From assembly GCA_021199375.1 (NCBI GenBank), contig JAJQIB010000032.1, positions 1 through 64,000 of the forward strand: DNA of 64,000 nucleotides. Reading direction: 5' to 3'. The translations under genes and the position numbers were made by a program. Below, one piece after another: positions 1-9,919 of the stretch (position 1 is the first letter of the stretch; each line of letters starts with the position of its first letter). Source of the stretch: Ruminococcus sp. (GTDB lineage: Bacteria > Bacillota > Clostridia > Oscillospirales > Ruminococcaceae). The notes beneath the pieces are model-generated. The model made no database searches and was not told the DNA's origin. It saw nothing but the letters and a program-made list of their open reading frames with translations.

Positions 1-55
1 AACCCCCGACCTGCTGATTACAAATCAGCTGCTCTACCAACTGAGCTACACCAGC
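1..55 (-). tRNA. tRNA-Thr (UGU), 3' end cut by the window edge
   Basis: Read on the minus strand, the segment begins with an acceptor strand GCTGGTG and a D-arm TAGCTCAGTTGGTAGAGC. An anticodon stem-loop follows: stem GCTGA/TCAGC around loop TTTGTAA, which gives anticodon UGT (Thr, ACA codons). The variable loop and the start of the T-arm are present; the rest of the T-arm and the acceptor 3' strand lie outside the window. Confidence 0.93.
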
Positions 56-243
56 GAAAGCGTTACAGCATCGACTTAGCAGCACAAGCATCAGTCTCGC
101 TCAACAGCTTTATAATTATAGCACAAAAATGAAAAGCTGTCAAGCACTTATTTTAAATTTGTTTGGTTGCACAAATTTAAACACTGATTTTTGTTTATTT
201 CGACAAAGAGCTGCCCTCTCGAACAGCTCTCGTCACTTCCCTG

Positions 244-1152
244 CTACTTACGTGTTGTAACCTTTTTCGCTTTACTCCAATCTCCATAAGACGTCTTGCC
301 GTTTGATTTTACATAAGCCTGCATTCTAAACCTATAAACGGTATCAGGCTTAAATCCCGTCATGCGGTATTCTGTCAGGCTTGATTTTAACAGCTTTTTG
401 GTTTTCCAGGATTTAGACTTCGTATCGTACTGCTGAAGCTTGTAGCCTGTACAGTCAACACCCTTCCATTTAAGCCTAATTGCCGTTGAGGTCTTTGCAG
501 CACCTAAAATGCTCACCTGCTCAGGCTCATCAGGCTCAAAGCCATTATATCCGCCCTTTTTTATCAGGCTCGGATAATCTACATACGCCCAGTCACGATC
601 TACATCCGAAGCTATGCCGCTTACATTTCCTGTAGATGTGTACTGCCACATACCGTAATCGCCGCTATAGTTTAGCGTATCTGAGTACTCGGCTATCCAT
701 AGTGCATAGCGACTTGCAACATCAGATGTTATATAGGATTGTAGGGGTGAGCGGCTCATATACAGTCCTGCGAAGTACCCATTGCCTTCCATTTCATCGC
801 AAAAGGCTTTAACAAGATTTGAGCAGAAGGTCTTGCCCCTTTTTAGCTGACTTTGCTCCTCAAGGTCGAAGTATATGGGATACTCTAAGGTTTTACCCTT
901 AATCGCCTCCATACAAACCTGAGCCTCAGCCCTCGCTTCATCTGCGCTTTCGGCATAGCTGTACCAGTAGGCGCCTACATCAAGCCCTGCGGCCTTAGCC
1001 GCCTTGTAATGCGACTCAAAAAGCGGATCCTTTTGCGAGATATACTCGCCAAAGCCTGCACGTATAATTACGAAGTCGATTCCCGAAGCTTTAACCTTAG
1101 CAAAGTCCACCTGCGTTTGGTATCTTGAAATATCAATACCCTTTACTGCCAT
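244..1152 (-). CDS. GH25-family phage lysozyme (endolysin) with C-terminal Fn3-like domain
   Basis: Glycoside hydrolase family 25 muramidase that would cut the glycan strands of peptidoglycan. The start GIDISRYQ carries the first conserved Asp, and YFDLEEQ near residue 95 matches the catalytic DxE of GH25. The hydrolase domain ends around residue 200. Residues about 212-302 form a fibronectin-III-like module, related in style to the Fn3 repeats of the C39 peptidase gene near 58 kb. There is no signal peptide, so export would depend on the adjacent holin, as for a phage endolysin. It is the last gene of the leftward lysis cassette and begins 4 nt after the holin stop. Confidence 0.93.
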   Translation of the reverse strand: MAVKGIDISRYQTQVDFAKVKASGIDFVIIRAGFGEYISQKDPLFESHYKAAKAAGLDVGAYWYSYAESADEARAEAQVCMEAIKGKTLEYPIYFDLEEQSQLKRGKTFCSNLVKAFCDEMEGNGYFAGLYMSRSPLQSYITSDVASRYALWIAEYSDTLNYSGDYGMWQYTSTGNVSGIASDVDRDWAYVDYPSLIKKGGYNGFEPDEPEQVSILGAAKTSTAIRLKWKGVDCTGYKLQQYDTKSKSWKTKKLLKSSLTEYRMTGFKPDTVYRFRMQAYVKSNGKTSYGDWSKAKKVTTRK

Positions 1153-1156
1153 CAGA

Positions 1157-1522
1157 TCAGTCCTCCTTTTTAAGCTTGCTGATTATTTTACTTATCCACA
1201 CAGCCTCCGGATTGATTTTGCCGTAGTTTTCTAAAATGCTCACAGCCTCCATCAAGGCTATGTAGACAAACACTGCCGTTGCCGTCATGGCTCCTGCAAG
1301 CTGAGATAGCTCGCAGCCTCCAAGGTAGCTGCCAAGCTTCTCAACGCCGATATCTAATCCACAGGCAACAAGCATGACTACAATCTCGGCTATCTTGTTT
1401 GCTCCGCCCTTGCGCATTCTGCTCGACTGTATACAGTCATTACAGTATGCTGAGATAAATCCCGTGATAAAGTCGGCAGCTGCAAGACCTATTACTATTA
1501 GCAGCATGATTATATATTGCAC
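1157..1522 (-). CDS. Phage holin, pfam05105-like (holin_4_1 / toxin-secretion type)
   Basis: A 121-residue protein with hydrophobic segments at residues about 1-25, 43-60 and 75-95 and a charged C-terminus ending KLKKED. The order of features (N-terminal helix ending AADFITGFISAY, basic loop with SSRMRKGGANK, then two helices) matches the phage_holin_4 family of clostridial and bacillar phages. The expected role is to permeabilise the membrane and let the endolysin out. It lies directly before the GH25 endolysin, the normal holin-lysin pairing. The family assignment is from memory of the pattern. Confidence 0.88.
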   Translation of the reverse strand: MQYIIMLLIVIGLAAADFITGFISAYCNDCIQSSRMRKGGANKIAEIVVMLVACGLDIGVEKLGSYLGGCELSQLAGAMTATAVFVYIALMEAVSILENYGKINPEAVWISKIISKLKKED

Positions 1523-1547
1523 ATAATCACCATTCCTTTCAGTTGTT

Positions 1548-2204
1548 TTATTTCACCGCAAGCATTCCGTTATAAGCGTACTGCGTGCCGTCTACCGAAA
1601 TTATTCCATCGTATATGTCACGATACTGGGCAAACGGTGTGAAGAAGAGGCTTTCACAGTAATCGCCATCAGAAAAGACTATCGGGGAAAGGGTCGTTTT
1701 GCCGCAGCCATTTACTACAAGCGATGATTTGATTGTCGAGAAGGTGGCGTCGCTGCTGCTGTTGTAGAAGGATGTCACCTGAGATGTGGTCGGGACGAAT
1801 GAGCGGACGTAAACACGGTCGCCATAGGTGCTGTCTGATGAGTAGACCATTGTAATCGCTGTATGTCCGTTTGCCGTTTTGGTGATGAACATATCACGAA
1901 TACAGGAGGTGTTGTAGTAGCCTGACATCATGAGCCCGCTGTCGGATTGGTACATTCCCGTGCCCACTGTGTAGCCTCGGTCGGCGTCAGCGTAGGAGGT
2001 GCCGTTTGAAAGGGCGACGGTGCGTATACCTGCCACTGAGCATTTAAATGCGGTTAAATCGTCTATCGTGCAGGTGATGCCGTTTGTGGCATCATAGGAA
2101 ATTGCATCGAAATAATCGGCGGCGTTAGCCTCCAGCCAGGTGCCAAGCTCGGCGATCATTTCGGATGTGGATGTTCCTGTGAATACTGTTTTAGTTACTG
2201 ACAT
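1548..2204 (-). CDS. Phage-type protein of unknown function in the lysis cassette
   Basis: A 218-residue protein without a signal peptide or membrane segment, rich in Ser, Thr, Tyr and Gly as tail appendage proteins often are. I recognise no domain. Its start ATG follows an AGGAGGAATAAA ribosome binding site that overlaps the stop codon of the BppU-like gene, so the two are translationally coupled. The position between a baseplate-like protein and the holin suggests a tail or receptor-binding accessory, as in the distal tail-lysis modules of siphophages. That is inference from position. Confidence 0.6.
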   Translation of the reverse strand: MSVTKTVFTGTSTSEMIAELGTWLEANAADYFDAISYDATNGITCTIDDLTAFKCSVAGIRTVALSNGTSYADADRGYTVGTGMYQSDSGLMMSGYYNTSCIRDMFITKTANGHTAITMVYSSDSTYGDRVYVRSFVPTTSQVTSFYNSSSDATFSTIKSSLVVNGCGKTTLSPIVFSDGDYCESLFFTPFAQYRDIYDGIISVDGTQYAYNGMLAVK

Positions 2205-2205
2205 T

Positions 2206-2895
2206 TTATTCCTCCTCTGCGTAGGATACGGTTGATGAAAGCCCAGCGGTGTAAAGATTTGCGTTGGAGGGGGTGCTACCGCTTGTTAGCTTTACAGAGC
2301 CTAGGTACTGAGTAACCGTGCCGCCTTGGGCATCTGTCACATAGTAGAGCGTGTCGCTGTCGGGCGTTAGAGCTTCATACTCCGTTTGTGTACACTTGAC
2401 TAGGCTGAGAGCTCCTAGGCGCACAGAAAGCTCGTCAGTGGCTGTCAAGAGGGCGTTTAGCTGCTCGGTAGAGTCGGCTTTGTAGGCTTCAAACTCGCTT
2501 ACAAAGGCTTGGTATTCATCGGTTGAGATTACTGCCTCATCGCCTACAGCGGCTGCGATTATAACAAGGTTTGCGGGTACGCTTGAAATAACCTCGCCGC
2601 TTGAGCCATAAAGCAGAAAATCAACGCTTGCATTACCGCTTTGAGTAAGGCTCTGATCGGTTAGTGGATAGGTCACAGAGCTTTCCCCAAGGCTGCCTTC
2701 GTTAACGGTGATTGTTCCATCGGGCTTTTTAACACGGATTTCGCTGCGATAGACATCCTCTAAATCAAGGCTTTCATTTTGGACAAAATAGCTAACCTCA
2801 ACAAAGCGAGAGTCACAATCGCCTTGCTTGGCGTAAATTGTCGATGGTGCGTGAGTGCAGGACAAATCAGTCGAAATTTGTGTTGTTACCACCAT
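2206..2895 (-). CDS. BppU-like phage baseplate upper protein
   Basis: Residues about 10-120 (STIYAKQGDCDSRFVEVSY, then KKPDGT and a strand-rich region ending SVPANLVII) resemble the N-terminal domain of lactococcal-type baseplate upper proteins (BppU_N). A short helical linker follows (EYQAFVSEFEAYKADSTEQL), then a C-terminal part with ALTPDSDTLYYVTDAQGG. The track ORF starts 38 codons upstream, but AAAGGAG placed 9 nt before ATGGTGGTAACA fixes the start at 2895. It is the first gene of the cassette and is preceded by a SOS-box promoter. No capsid, terminase, portal or integrase gene lies nearby. Confidence 0.72.
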   Translation of the reverse strand: MVVTTQISTDLSCTHAPSTIYAKQGDCDSRFVEVSYFVQNESLDLEDVYRSEIRVKKPDGTITVNEGSLGESSVTYPLTDQSLTQSGNASVDFLLYGSSGEVISSVPANLVIIAAAVGDEAVISTDEYQAFVSEFEAYKADSTEQLNALLTATDELSVRLGALSLVKCTQTEYEALTPDSDTLYYVTDAQGGTVTQYLGSVKLTSGSTPSNANLYTAGLSSTVSYAEEE

Positions 2896-2964
2896 TATAT
2901 TCATCTCCTTTGATTTTTGAGAAGGTATATCTCTAAAGGGCTTTTTTTCTTCCCTTCTAATTAT

Positions 2965-2993
2965 ATTATATCCGCAAAAGAACGTTTGTTCAA
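2965..2993 (-). promoter_or_regulatory. Promoter of the lysis cassette with overlapping LexA (SOS) box
   Basis: On the minus strand TTGAAC and TATAAT are separated by 17 nt. The -35 hexamer is embedded in GAACAAACGTTC (2980-2991), which matches the Gram-positive LexA/DinR core GAAC-N4-GTTC with RNRY-type central bases. A LexA dimer there would block RNA polymerase, so the cassette is probably induced by DNA damage. Seen directly; LexA binding is inferred. Confidence 0.75.
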
Positions 2994-3057: not shown

Positions 3058-3103
3058 TTAAAAAAAATCCGCCAAAACAGCTCTTAATAAGCCATTTTGA
3101 CGG
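3058..3103 (-). terminator. Rho-independent terminator after the LysR gene
   Basis: On the minus strand CCGTCAAAATGGCT pairs imperfectly with AGCTGTTTTGGCGG around a TATTAAG loop and is followed by a run of T. It sits just after the LysR stop codon and before the lysis-cassette promoter. Confidence 0.8.
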
Positions 3104-3140
3104 AAAATCGTTTGATTTTTAGCGTTTTTTTCTCAAAAAG

Positions 3141-7442: not shown

Positions 7443-8699
7443 ATGAAAACAATTTTTAGAAGGATACTGACGGCTTCTGTTACATTTGTGATTTTGCTTT
7501 TTATGCCACTTAATTTAAATGGTAGTTGCGAGAGTACAACCAAATATTATCTAGGAGAAGTTGTGAATGCAGGAAAAGATACAGGATTTTCTGAATCAAA
7601 TAAAATAGAAGAGGATGATCCTCATTTTGGATGGGAGCTTGGTACCTTTTACGTTAGTGGATATACAAGCGTTACGGATACCAGTTCTAAATCCCCTGTC
7701 TTTTTAAAAAATGTCGGTGATACTGTGCAACTGAATTTTTGTCTTGATCAAGATATCTCAAAGTTAAATGGAGACTCTGCTTTGTCAATCTATAGTGACA
7801 AAAATGGATATGATGAATATTTCGGGATAGAAAAAACTAATTTCGGCAAGGGGACTCTAATTATACAAAAAACAGATTATGAAAACAAGAAAAGTGAACC
7901 TACTGTCTATACTGACTATTTAAAAGCACTGGAAGAGGGTGCTGATACACAAGTAGATGTATTTGAAGAAGGCGATTATGAGGTAGCACTTAACTATGAA
8001 ATACGTAACGATCCTAGAGTTGTTTTTGGAGTATCAATTATCCCTACATATACAAATTACCGCATATCATTTAAATTTTCTGTTAGGAATGGCAATTGCA
8101 TGGTTTTTCCTTTTGATGTTGAAACAGGAGGAGAGCTCACTAATACTTCAATTACCGAAAATGGATTTTACCTTGATTTAGCTAATTCCAGATACCTCGA
8201 CATCAATATTAAAAAAGAAGTTCTCGCTGAAGGAGCAAACGGTCTTGTTGAGGATACCAAATTTAACAAACCAGCTTCTGACGGGGAACAATATACAGAC
8301 GAAGGTATATATACTATAACAGTGAAAAACAAGTACACTAATGAAAAAACAACAAAAGTTATTTATGTTGGAACAAATGATATATTAAAAGCTTATGTCT
8401 CCACGGATTACTCAATTTCCGAAATAAATGATTACTTAGAAATGGGTGCGACCATAAATAGTGATGGCAGTATTAACGTGCCATCAGCTCAAAGTGACGA
8501 ATCTGATATTTCGAGTAGTGATGATGAAAGCGTAACATTTTCAGAAGAAAGCGATGTTTATGAAGACCAAGCAAACAAGTCCTCAACATCAAGTTTAATA
8601 CCGACTATTGTAGCTATTGTAGTGGTTTTAGCTCTCATTGTCATAATATTCATAGTTTGCAAATTTAGAAAAAAAGATAAAAGGGTGGAAAGGAAATAA
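7443..8699 (+). CDS. Membrane-anchored surface protein paired with the LHH-nuclease lipoprotein
   Basis: A 418-residue protein of unknown family. An N-terminal signal peptide (residues about 1-27) precedes an extracellular, acidic, beta-rich region. Residues about 340-385 are a Ser/Asp/Glu-rich stalk, and a C-terminal membrane helix (IPTIVAIVVVLALIVIIFIV) is followed by a basic tail KFRKKDKRVERK. That topology puts almost the whole protein outside the cell. The stop codon overlaps the start codon of the nuclease lipoprotein by 1 nt (TAATG), so the two are translationally coupled. It could be a receptor, presentation partner or immunity factor for the nuclease; none of these is shown. The region looks AT-richer than its neighbours. 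Confidence 0.85.
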   Translation: MKTIFRRILTASVTFVILLFMPLNLNGSCESTTKYYLGEVVNAGKDTGFSESNKIEEDDPHFGWELGTFYVSGYTSVTDTSSKSPVFLKNVGDTVQLNFCLDQDISKLNGDSALSIYSDKNGYDEYFGIEKTNFGKGTLIIQKTDYENKKSEPTVYTDYLKALEEGADTQVDVFEEGDYEVALNYEIRNDPRVVFGVSIIPTYTNYRISFKFSVRNGNCMVFPFDVETGGELTNTSITENGFYLDLANSRYLDINIKKEVLAEGANGLVEDTKFNKPASDGEQYTDEGIYTITVKNKYTNEKTTKVIYVGTNDILKAYVSTDYSISEINDYLEMGATINSDGSINVPSAQSDESDISSSDDESVTFSEESDVYEDQANKSSTSSLIPTIVAIVVVLALIVIIFIVCKFRKKDKRVERK

Positions 8700-9919
8700 T
8701 GAAAAAAATAATTCTTATATTATTAAGTGTTGTACTTGTTTTAAGTAGCTGTTCTCAGGCAAGCAAAGAAGCAGTTGACAGCGAAAATTCGGGTGACACA
8801 GTCGAAACAACTAATAATCTTACAACCCAAACTGAGATTTCTACAGAAGAAGAGGAGATCTCGTTTACTGGATTAGATGATGACGATCTTGCCAAGTATA
8901 TAGAAGAAACTGTATATAATAGTGCTATTGAAGCGCTTGACAGTGATGAATACTTTGTTGAAAGTGTATCAACAGTCTATATATCTCAGGAATATATTGA
9001 TGAGAAAGAATACAACTCGAAAGAAAATATATTTTTTGGCTACACGTTATCACAACTAGATGAAATATTTAATGGCGAAAAATATGTATTTACTCTCGAT
9101 GAAAACAATCAGACAACTGTAAAAGAATTTGAAGCCTATGATGATACCTATGATAAAGTGATTAAAAATGTAGCGATAGGTACAGGCGTCATTTTGATTT
9201 GCGTCACGGTTTCTGCGGTTACATCTACTGCCGCTCCCGCTGTAAGCATGATTTTTGCTGTTGGTGCAAAAAGTGGTACCATAGCAGGGTTATCTTCCGG
9301 TGCCATAGGAGGACTAGTCGCTGGTGTGACTACAGGTATAGAAACTAGAGATTTTGATGAGGCTATAAAAGCTGCAGCACTTGAAGGCAGTGAAAGCTTT
9401 AAATGGGGAGCAATAATAGGCTCGGCTACAGGTGCAGCTTCAGAAACGATAGCTTTAAAAAATGCAACGTTAAACGGATTAACCATGAATGAAGCGGCAT
9501 CGATTCAAAAAGAAACCAAATGGTCGCTTGAGGCAATCACGAGCTTACATTCATGGGATGAATATGAAATATACAGATCTGCGAATGTATCTCAAATTAG
9601 TCTTGAAAGTGGAGAATCTATTCTACTAAGTAGCGACATTGATTGGGATTTAATAGACGAGAATGGTCTGACAAATCTTCAAAGAGCTGCTAAGGGAAAT
9701 GCACCATTAGATTCATCGGGTAATTCTATAGAGTTACATCATGTAGGGCAAAAAACAGACTCTCCACTTGTTACTCTTACAAAAGAACAGCATCGCTCAT
9801 CAGGAAATAACACGATTCTCCATTATGCTGAAGAAGGAAAGGATATAACCAGTAATGAATGGAATAAGCAAAGAAATGATATTTGGAAATCGATAGCAGA
9901 TTATCTTTCAGCTAATTAA
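8699..9919 (+). CDS. Lipoprotein with C-terminal LHH-type HNH/EndoVII nuclease domain (putative polymorphic toxin)
   Basis: A 406-residue protein. Residues 1-18 form a lipoprotein signal with lipobox LSSC. Residues 19-155 are acidic and extracellular. Residues about 157-215 are a Gly/Ala/Ser-rich hydrophobic stretch (VILICVTVSAVTSTAAPAVS, then GAIGGLVAGV) like the membrane-entry segments of polymorphic toxins. Residues 320-406 match the LHH nuclease family of the HNH/EndoVII superfamily: LTNLQRAAKGNAP, LHH at 346-348, and a further His in TKEQHR at 365. Such domains cut DNA as toxin tips. No immunity-like gene follows; a hairpin and a convergent adhesin gene come next. The toxin role is inferred from domain architecture. 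Confidence 0.82.
   Translation: MKKIILILLSVVLVLSSCSQASKEAVDSENSGDTVETTNNLTTQTEISTEEEEISFTGLDDDDLAKYIEETVYNSAIEALDSDEYFVESVSTVYISQEYIDEKEYNSKENIFFGYTLSQLDEIFNGEKYVFTLDENNQTTVKEFEAYDDTYDKVIKNVAIGTGVILICVTVSAVTSTAAPAVSMIFAVGAKSGTIAGLSSGAIGGLVAGVTTGIETRDFDEAIKAAALEGSESFKWGAIIGSATGAASETIALKNATLNGLTMNEAASIQKETKWSLEAITSLHSWDEYEIYRSANVSQISLESGESILLSSDIDWDLIDENGLTNLQRAAKGNAPLDSSGNSIELHHVGQKTDSPLVTLTKEQHRSSGNNTILHYAEEGKDITSNEWNKQRNDIWKSIADYLSAN

What the first reader, a model, noticed from the sequence alone, without database searches (positions are those of the whole stretch)
244..2993. SOS-controlled phage lysis cassette without a phage
A BppU-like protein, an unknown tail-type protein, a holin and a GH25 endolysin form one coupled operon. 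Its promoter has GAACAAACGTTC overlapping the -35. That is the Gram-positive LexA core. No capsid, portal, terminase, integrase or repressor gene is within the window, and a LysR operon follows directly. DNA damage would thus trigger host lysis from a stand-alone module, perhaps to release a tailocin, bacteriocin or vesicles encoded elsewhere, or as an altruistic suicide device. A decayed prophage is the simple alternative.
Basis: partly seen in the sequence, partly recalled or inferred. Interest (0 to 1): 0.75.

Follow-up and report, generated by a model that had tools for sequence, protein, structure and literature searches.

The report
SOS-controlled phage lysis operon, no phage
A gut bacterium of the Ruminococcus group keeps a four-gene piece of a phage (two tail-tip-type proteins, a membrane-hole maker and a wall-cutting enzyme) as a free-standing operon with a DNA-damage switch; similar free-standing operons occur across its genus and two carry the same switch in a second genus, so it looks like a captured self-lysis device rather than debris, but whether it lyses cells and what it releases is untested.

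Summary
Four intact minus-strand genes (window 244-2895: BppU-type tail protein, unknown tail-type protein, PF05105 holin, GH25 muramidase with fn3) form one transcription unit between the LysR terminator and tRNA-Thr. GAACAAACGTTC overlaps its -35. No prophage lies on either side: the contig beyond the left edge is joined by a 54-base overlap and carries housekeeping genes. In about 85% of the genome, 345 phage ORFs found no virion gene outside the cassette.
It is not a one-off remnant. All 13 held genomes of the genus have a cassette-type GH25 with no prophage seen beside it; seven carry the BppU gene with their own promoter. Prophages carry the same module at the end of the late operon.
SOS control is supported but patchy. 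The site is absent from seven orthologous congener promoters, including the closest species. It is present, perfect and beside the promoter, in two species of another genus, one with the identical 12-mer. The host's Y-family polymerase promoter has paired boxes of the same type.
Best reading: a domesticated phage tail-tip/lysis operon, LexA-repressed here, lysing damaged cells. Cargo is unknown. It resembles operon II of the Faecalibacterium gene transfer agent, but no head operon was found. No experiment exists.

The parts
2206..2895 (-). gene 1: BppU-type baseplate/tail-tip protein, 229 aa
   Evidence: Phage_tail_C E=6e-8, BppU_N E=3e-4; orthologues 42-48% identical in stand-alone cassettes of six congeners; BppU_N-positive homologue in phage L092
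1548..2204 (-). gene 2: unknown tail/receptor-binding-type protein, 218 aa
   Evidence: no Pfam/PHROG hit; homologue upstream of the holin in prophage contig L304, E=2e-15; 24% identical to the L092 gene at the same position; AlphaFold model unusable, pLDDT 37
1157..1522 (-). gene 3: holin, 121 aa, GTG start
   Evidence: PF05105 E=4.5e-15, only copy in the genome; 57-59% identical to L064/L065 holins, 49-62% to most of 26 viral-contig holins
244..1152 (-). gene 4: GH25 muramidase (endolysin) with fn3 domain, 302 aa; catalytic D7/D96/E98 in place
   Evidence: PF01183 E=2e-32, fn3 E=1e-6; 71% identical in the catalytic domain to G011 GH25-fn3 and 65% to phage L092; invariant residues
2980..2991 (-). 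LexA-type box GAACAAACGTTC overlapping the -35
   Evidence: identical 12-mer at the L065 cassette promoter
2965..2993 (-). promoter TTGAAC-N17-TATAAT
   Evidence: orthologous promoters in congeners
3068..3104 (-). intrinsic terminator of the upstream LysR gene, isolating the cassette
   Evidence: -22 kcal/mol, z=-4.8
201..235 (-). hairpin just after the endolysin gene, probable 3' boundary (no strict U-tract)
   Evidence: -20.6 kcal/mol, z=-4.0
1..55 (-). 5' part of a tRNA-Thr (TGT) gene cut by the contig end; its own promoter at 143-115
   Evidence: 54-base overlap with contig C14, which continues tRNA-Thr, tRNA-Tyr, then housekeeping genes

Best explanation
This is a domesticated, free-standing 3' end of a tailed-phage late operon (tail-tip protein, receptor-binding-type protein, holin, GH25 endolysin). 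In this species it is repressed by LexA through a site on its -35. When RecA filaments on damaged DNA trigger LexA self-cleavage, the operon is read as one mRNA; the holin opens the membrane, the muramidase cuts peptidoglycan, and the damaged cell lyses, releasing its contents together with the tail-type proteins. Shown by sequence: gene content, intactness, a self-contained transcription unit, absence of neighbouring prophage, recurrence in relatives, a box of the host's own SOS type, and the same kind of box at a related cassette in another genus. Inferred: LexA binding, inducibility, lysis, and any benefit (population-level release, as in type 10 secretion or gene transfer agents, or removal of damaged cells).
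For: Families and intact frames. Bounded unit: LysR terminator, own promoter, 3' hairpin, separate tRNA promoter. No prophage left or right; no virion gene outside the cassette in about 85% of the genome; no tape-measure protein (its two weak hits are metabolic/transport proteins). Cassettes in non-phage settings across the genus: BppU in seven genomes, cassette-type GH25 in all 13. Same module at the end of late operons in prophage-like viral contigs. SOS: lexA and recA present; paired boxes at the Y-family polymerase promoter; a second promoter flanked by two boxes and sharing TCTACCTCTTGA with the cassette promoter; perfect boxes GAACAGATGTTC (L064) and GAACAAACGTTC (L065) beside the promoter of the cassette in another genus, arms kept while the centre differs. 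About 12 promoters x 100 bp predict 0.017 such sites; three seen, two if the sister species count once (P about 1e-4). GAACN4GTTC is the published B. subtilis SOS box and one of the motifs used for C. difficile LexA (PMC4234289).
Against: The box is missing from orthologous promoters of G001, G002, G004-G007 and of G011. lexA and recA themselves show no box (lexA sits behind a mur-ligase gene in most congeners checked), so the regulon is only partly anchored. The promoter set for the chance estimate was assembled after the first site was seen, and L064/L065 share a genus. A lysis-only device has no obvious need for two tail-type genes. No expression or lysis data.
Confidence: 0.6

Rival explanations
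1. The cassette is the second (tail/lysis) operon of a gene transfer agent or other particle whose head genes lie elsewhere, like FpGTA II of Faecalibacterium; SOS control times particle release.
For: FpGTA II (5.5 kb: baseplate, tail fibre, RBP, holin, endolysin) lies about 125 kb from the head operon FpGTA I in one strain, and Ruminococcus callidus shows GTA-like 4.6-kb packaging (PMC12946183). Two tail-type genes are kept intact next to the lysis genes in several species. A 12-kb cluster in the same order (L029) carries terminase, P22-like portal, scaffold, capsid, BppU, XhlA-like holin and lysin with no integrase seen.
Against: No head gene found in about 85% of this genome with L029 or 345 phage ORFs, nor by a P-loop screen; the sampling and single-sequence searches could miss a divergent operon. 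In G007 the lysis part lacks a visible holin and in G011 only GH25 is left.
Confidence: 0.25
2. The box is fortuitous. The cassette is kept for stationary-phase or stress lysis under another regulator; TTGAAC merely resembles half a LexA site.
For: GAACN4GTTC is at chance frequency genome-wide. The closest congener has the orthologous promoter TTGACA-N17-TATGAT without the box, so a few changes suffice to create it.
Against: Perfect boxes at the promoter of the L064 and L065 cassettes with differing centres; GAACAAAYGTTC is over-represented in this genome (4 vs 0.8; P 0.008, chosen post hoc).
Confidence: 0.17
3. A slowly decaying prophage remnant: the lysis end of a late operon left at host loci with no present function.
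For: Module and order match prophage late-operon ends; G009 and G011 copies are reduced.
Against: All four frames and GH25 catalytic residues intact here. Five congeners share one locus (downstream of MBOAT/DHHW genes), each with an orthologous promoter directly before gene 1. An unused holin-endolysin pair behind a good promoter should be quickly lost.
Confidence: 0.12
4. An antagonism device: the lysin with tail-type binding proteins is released by a few lysing cells to kill rivals, like a bacteriocin-release operon.
For: Gene 2 and the gene 1 C-terminus vary strongly between species while the GH25 catalytic core is kept.
Against: No signal peptide or toxin domain; the tail proteins would need a particle to act at a distance; same genes in ordinary prophages.
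Confidence: 0.06

Closest known systems
Type 10 secretion systems / holin-endolysin lysis cassettes outside phages (Serratia ChiWXYZ, Yersinia entomophaga; PMC10847048)
   Same: Phage-derived holin plus wall hydrolase kept outside a prophage and thought to release contents by lysis of a subpopulation
   Different: Gram-positive without spanins; two phage tail-tip-type genes in the operon; no cargo gene; LexA-type box, whereas the Y. entomophaga T10SS is described as SOS-insensitive
FpGTA operon II of Faecalibacterium prausnitzii (PMC12946183)
   Same: Same bacterial family; separate operon of baseplate, RBP-type, holin and endolysin genes away from any prophage
   Different: FpGTA II is 5.5 kb and accompanied by a head operon with particles seen; here 2.7 kb, no head operon found; SOS box not reported there; sequences not compared
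Late-operon 3' end of rumen/gut prophages with PF05105 holin (e.g. IMG/VR contigs L092, L290-L310)
   Same: Same gene types and order: tail/RBP, holin, GH25 or other lysin
   Different: There it ends a long late operon with tape measure and Tal genes and has no promoter-linked LexA box; here it has its own promoter and box
SOS-driven release operons such as C. perfringens uviAB-bcn and colicin lysis genes (from general knowledge, not tested)
   Same: DNA damage couples to host lysis or release
   Different: Those carry a bacteriocin gene and are often on plasmids; none here

Membership tests
Prophage | virion, integration and repressor genes contiguous with the lysis genes | tested here: not met
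   64 kb to the right and 40 kb beyond the inferred left junction hold host genes only
LexA/SOS regulon member | GAACN4GTTC site placed to block the promoter | tested here: met
   2980-2991 overlaps the -35; lexA and recA present
LexA/SOS regulon member | same site type at a known SOS gene of the same genome | tested here: met
   Y-family polymerase promoter: GAACGTATGTTT and GAACATTTGTTC
LexA/SOS regulon member | site conserved at orthologous promoters | tested here: inconclusive
   absent in seven congener promoters, present in two species of another genus
LexA/SOS regulon member | induction by DNA damage or LexA binding | not testable with these tools
   no expression or binding data
Holin-endolysin lysis system | multi-TM holin plus peptidoglycan hydrolase with intact active site in one operon | tested here: met
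   PF05105, hydrophobic segments, GH25 with D7/D96/E98
Holin-endolysin lysis system | lyses cells when expressed | not testable with these tools
   needs bench work
Type 10 secretion system | lysis cassette outside a phage | tested here: met
Type 10 secretion system | cargo genes transcriptionally coupled to the cassette | tested here: not met
   the unit holds only the four genes
Gene transfer agent (FpGTA-like) | tail/RBP/holin/endolysin operon separate from prophages | tested here: met
Gene transfer agent (FpGTA-like) | head operon (terminase, portal, capsid) elsewhere in the genome | tested here: inconclusive
   none found in about 85% of the genome with single-sequence searches and a P-loop screen
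Gene transfer agent (FpGTA-like) | particles packaging host DNA | not testable with these tools
   reported for R. callidus (PMC12946183), not for this strain
Siphovirus-type tailocin | tape-measure and tail-tube genes | tested here: not met
   no phrog_58 tape measure in the genome; same search finds them in G005, G007, G008, G009

The most novel reading that the evidence does not exclude
Ruminococcaceae carry a split, domesticated phage-particle system whose tail-tip and lysis genes form a small separate operon under direct LexA control, so that DNA damage alone decides when a cell bursts and sheds particles (a gene transfer agent or tail-tip complex). The window would show the first SOS-switched version of the FpGTA-II type of operon.
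Probability: 0.25. Interest if true: 0.75.

Novelty: new variant of a known kind. Interest (0 to 1): 0.55.

Why it matters
Programmed lysis outside prophages is known mainly from Gram-negative type 10 secretion and is not known to answer to SOS. A phage-derived lysis operon widespread in a major gut/rumen genus, with a damage switch in at least three species of two genera, would link antibiotics and other DNA-damaging agents directly to lysis, release of cell contents and possibly DNA transfer in abundant gut bacteria. It would also give a handle on the GTA-like packaging reported for Ruminococcus callidus, whose genes are not yet identified.

Tried and rejected
Prophage past the left edge: rejected via the C14 overlap and its housekeeping genes. 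Lone chance box: weakened by L064/L065. Genome-wide enrichment of GAACN4GTTC: none. lexA promoters as LexA-motif reference: unhelpful, because lexA sits behind a mur-ligase gene without a box in most congeners. Most Y-polymerase promoters of congeners are uninformative too. Tailocin in the genome: no tape measure; weak hits are acetolactate synthase and an AI-2E transporter. GTA head operon: not found with L029 proteins, 345 phage ORFs, a Walker motif screen or a PHROG scan of 127 ORFs, whose family list is cut at 25 of 58. AlphaFold of gene 2: pLDDT 37, no fold search made. PADLOC: no defence family. Direct relatives of genes 1 and 2 in viral contigs by single-sequence scan: none confirmed; profile or co-location with the holin was needed.
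Full report
1. What is there. Window 244-2895 (minus strand) holds four intact genes in the order 5' BppU-type tail protein (2206-2895), unknown 218-aa protein (1548-2204), PF05105 holin (1157-1522, GTG start), GH25 muramidase with an fn3 domain (244-1152) 3'. Gaps are 1, 25 and 4 nt and each gene has a ribosome-binding site. The first gene passes Phage_tail_C (6e-8) and sits just below the BppU_N cut-off; its phage homologue in L092 passes it. GH25 catalytic acids D7, D96 and E98 are invariant in the family alignment. The unit is self-contained: LysR, upstream on the same strand, ends in a strong terminator at 3104-3068 (z -4.8); the promoter TTGAAC-N17-TATAAT is at 2993-2965; a stable hairpin follows the endolysin at 235-201; tRNA-Thr downstream has its own promoter at 143-115.

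2. The box. GAACAAACGTTC (2980-2991) overlaps the -35 and is unique in the genome. GAACN4GTTC is the published B. subtilis SOS box and among the motifs used for the C. difficile LexA regulon (PMC4234289). Genome-wide the 8-base motif is exactly at chance (31 seen, 31.7 expected), so position is what matters. lexA and recA are present. The Y-family polymerase promoter of the same genome carries GAACGTATGTTT and GAACATTTGTTC around its -10. A second promoter (L038) is flanked by GAACATTTGTTC and GAACATATGTTC and shares TCTACCTCTTGA with the cassette promoter. GAACAAAYGTTC, the form at the cassette and the polymerase, occurs 4 times against 0.8 expected (P 0.008, core chosen after the fact).

3. 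No phage. The window is the start of contig C39. Its first 54 bases equal the start of contig C14 in reverse complement, as two contigs sharing a k-mer end do; C14 continues tRNA-Thr, tRNA-Tyr, then groESL, arginine-synthesis and other housekeeping genes for 40 kb. The adjacency is inferred from the overlap. To the right the window is host genes. PF05105 occurs only here. A tape-measure profile that finds prophages in four congeners finds none in this genome (two weak hits are acetolactate synthase and a transporter). Of about 1.97 Mb of the genome sampled in stretches, 345 phage ORFs hit integrases, recombinases, regulators and repeat-rich surface proteins, but the only virion-type hits are the four cassette genes. 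About 15% was not seen and single-sequence searches miss divergent genes.

4. Relatives. BppU orthologues (42-48% identical) occur in six congeners in non-phage settings: G002, G004, G005, G006 and G007 all directly downstream of MBOAT/DHHW genes, G001 (Ruminococcus sp. YE71) downstream of clpB. A GH25 search finds a cassette-type enzyme in all 13 held genomes of the genus. Their neighbourhoods show variable middle and holin genes (XhlA-like plus a small TM protein in G001, G002, G008 and G010; a different one-TM protein in G004; none visible in G007). Some contigs end inside the cassette, so gene content there is a lower bound. In the closest congener tested, G011, a GH25-fn3 71% identical in the catalytic domain stands alone beside the tmRNA gene behind an orthologous promoter. 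The -35/-10 and spacer are recognisably homologous across the genus, but none of the seven other promoters has the box.

5. The second genus. In family genus g96, L064 (G113) and L065 (G406) carry tail protein - 213-aa protein - holin (57-59% identical) - GH25 in the same order, with a host zinc-ribbon gene divergent upstream (L064). Each promoter TTGACA-N17-TAGCAT is followed 10-11 nt later by a perfect box: GAACAGATGTTC and GAACAAACGTTC, the latter identical to the window's. Arms are kept while centres differ, as expected for a used operator. With a background of 1.4e-5 per base (same rate in viral and congener loci), about 12 promoters x 100 bp predict 0.017 sites; three are seen, two if the sister species count once (P about 1e-4). 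The promoter set was gathered during the study, so this is a guide, not a formal test. A third g96 genome (L066) has a different lysin and no box. The box position differs between genera (on the -35 versus after the -10), which suggests SOS control was gained more than once or moved.

6. Origin. Viral contigs with 49-62% identical holins (26 loci, many with tape measure, Tal, integrase and repressor nearby) show the same order - tail/RBP genes, holin, GH25 or other lysin - at the end of the late operon, without a promoter-linked box. L304 has a homologue of gene 2 (2e-15). L092/L093 carry BppU, a gene-2-like protein, holins and a 65-68% identical GH25. So the cassette is a captured late-operon end.

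7. How it most likely works. Shown: the parts and the damage-type operator. Inferred: LexA represses; RecA-dependent LexA cleavage releases the operon; holin and muramidase lyse the cell. What this buys the population is open. Two tail-type genes are kept intact next to the lysis genes, which fits release of a particle. The closest published case is the Faecalibacterium GTA, whose second operon holds baseplate, fibre, RBP, holin and endolysin apart from the head operon, and the same study reports GTA-like packaging in Ruminococcus callidus (PMC12946183). L029, in the same order, shows a compact 12-kb cluster with terminase, P22-like portal, capsid, BppU, holin and lysin and no integrase seen. 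No head genes were found here, so membership in a GTA is not claimed. Compared with type 10 secretion systems, this unit has no coupled cargo gene and carries an SOS box, whereas the Yersinia system is described as SOS-insensitive (PMC10847048).

8. Verdict. Observation confirmed; interpretation partly supported and strengthened by a second genus, weakened by absence of the box within its own genus. A new variant of a known kind.

Noticed in passing
L038/L039 (G000:C12, sites 27569 and 27630): Promoter TTGACT-N17-TATAAT flanked on both sides by perfect LexA boxes, driving a 93-aa ORF and a small sigma-r4/HTH protein: probable uncharacterised SOS operon.
   Followed up: partly
L029:6613-18745 (G082:C37): 12-kb podovirus/GTA-like cluster TerS, TerL, P22-like portal, scaffold, capsid, internal virion protein, BppU, XhlA-like, amidase, flanked by host-type genes; no integrase or replication genes seen.
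   Followed up: partly
L028:8905-10695 (G012): Another free-standing group of tail-type genes without lysis genes, behind a TTGACT-N16-TATGAT promoter.
   Followed up: partly
G000 C4, C11, C13, C17 and others; also upstream of lexA (L045): A short repeated element (ORF MLVVRACSYQSHELTAAFAK...) carries some of the GAACN4GTTC matches and a similar repeat sits directly upstream of lexA.
   Followed up: no
L112 (G011:C20), Y-family polymerase promoter: Two copies of GAATCATATGTTC, a 13-nt variant of the box, suggesting a shifted LexA motif in the closest congener; the LexA recognition helix also differs (STSTAHHIITSL vs STSTAYRAVKNL).
   Followed up: partly
L031/L110 (G000:C4:50382): Perfect box just after an antisense TATAAT at the 3' end of an ABC transporter gene, possible SOS-controlled antisense transcript.
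   Followed up: no
L034/L111 and L101 (G000 C9, C21): GAACAATTGTTC directly abuts TGTTCCACGTGGAACA, a parS-like palindrome, in two places.
   Followed up: no
window 8699-9919: Lipoprotein-like gene ending in an LHH-type nuclease-like motif (ELHHVGQ...); possible polymorphic toxin, seen only in the ORF list.
   Followed up: no
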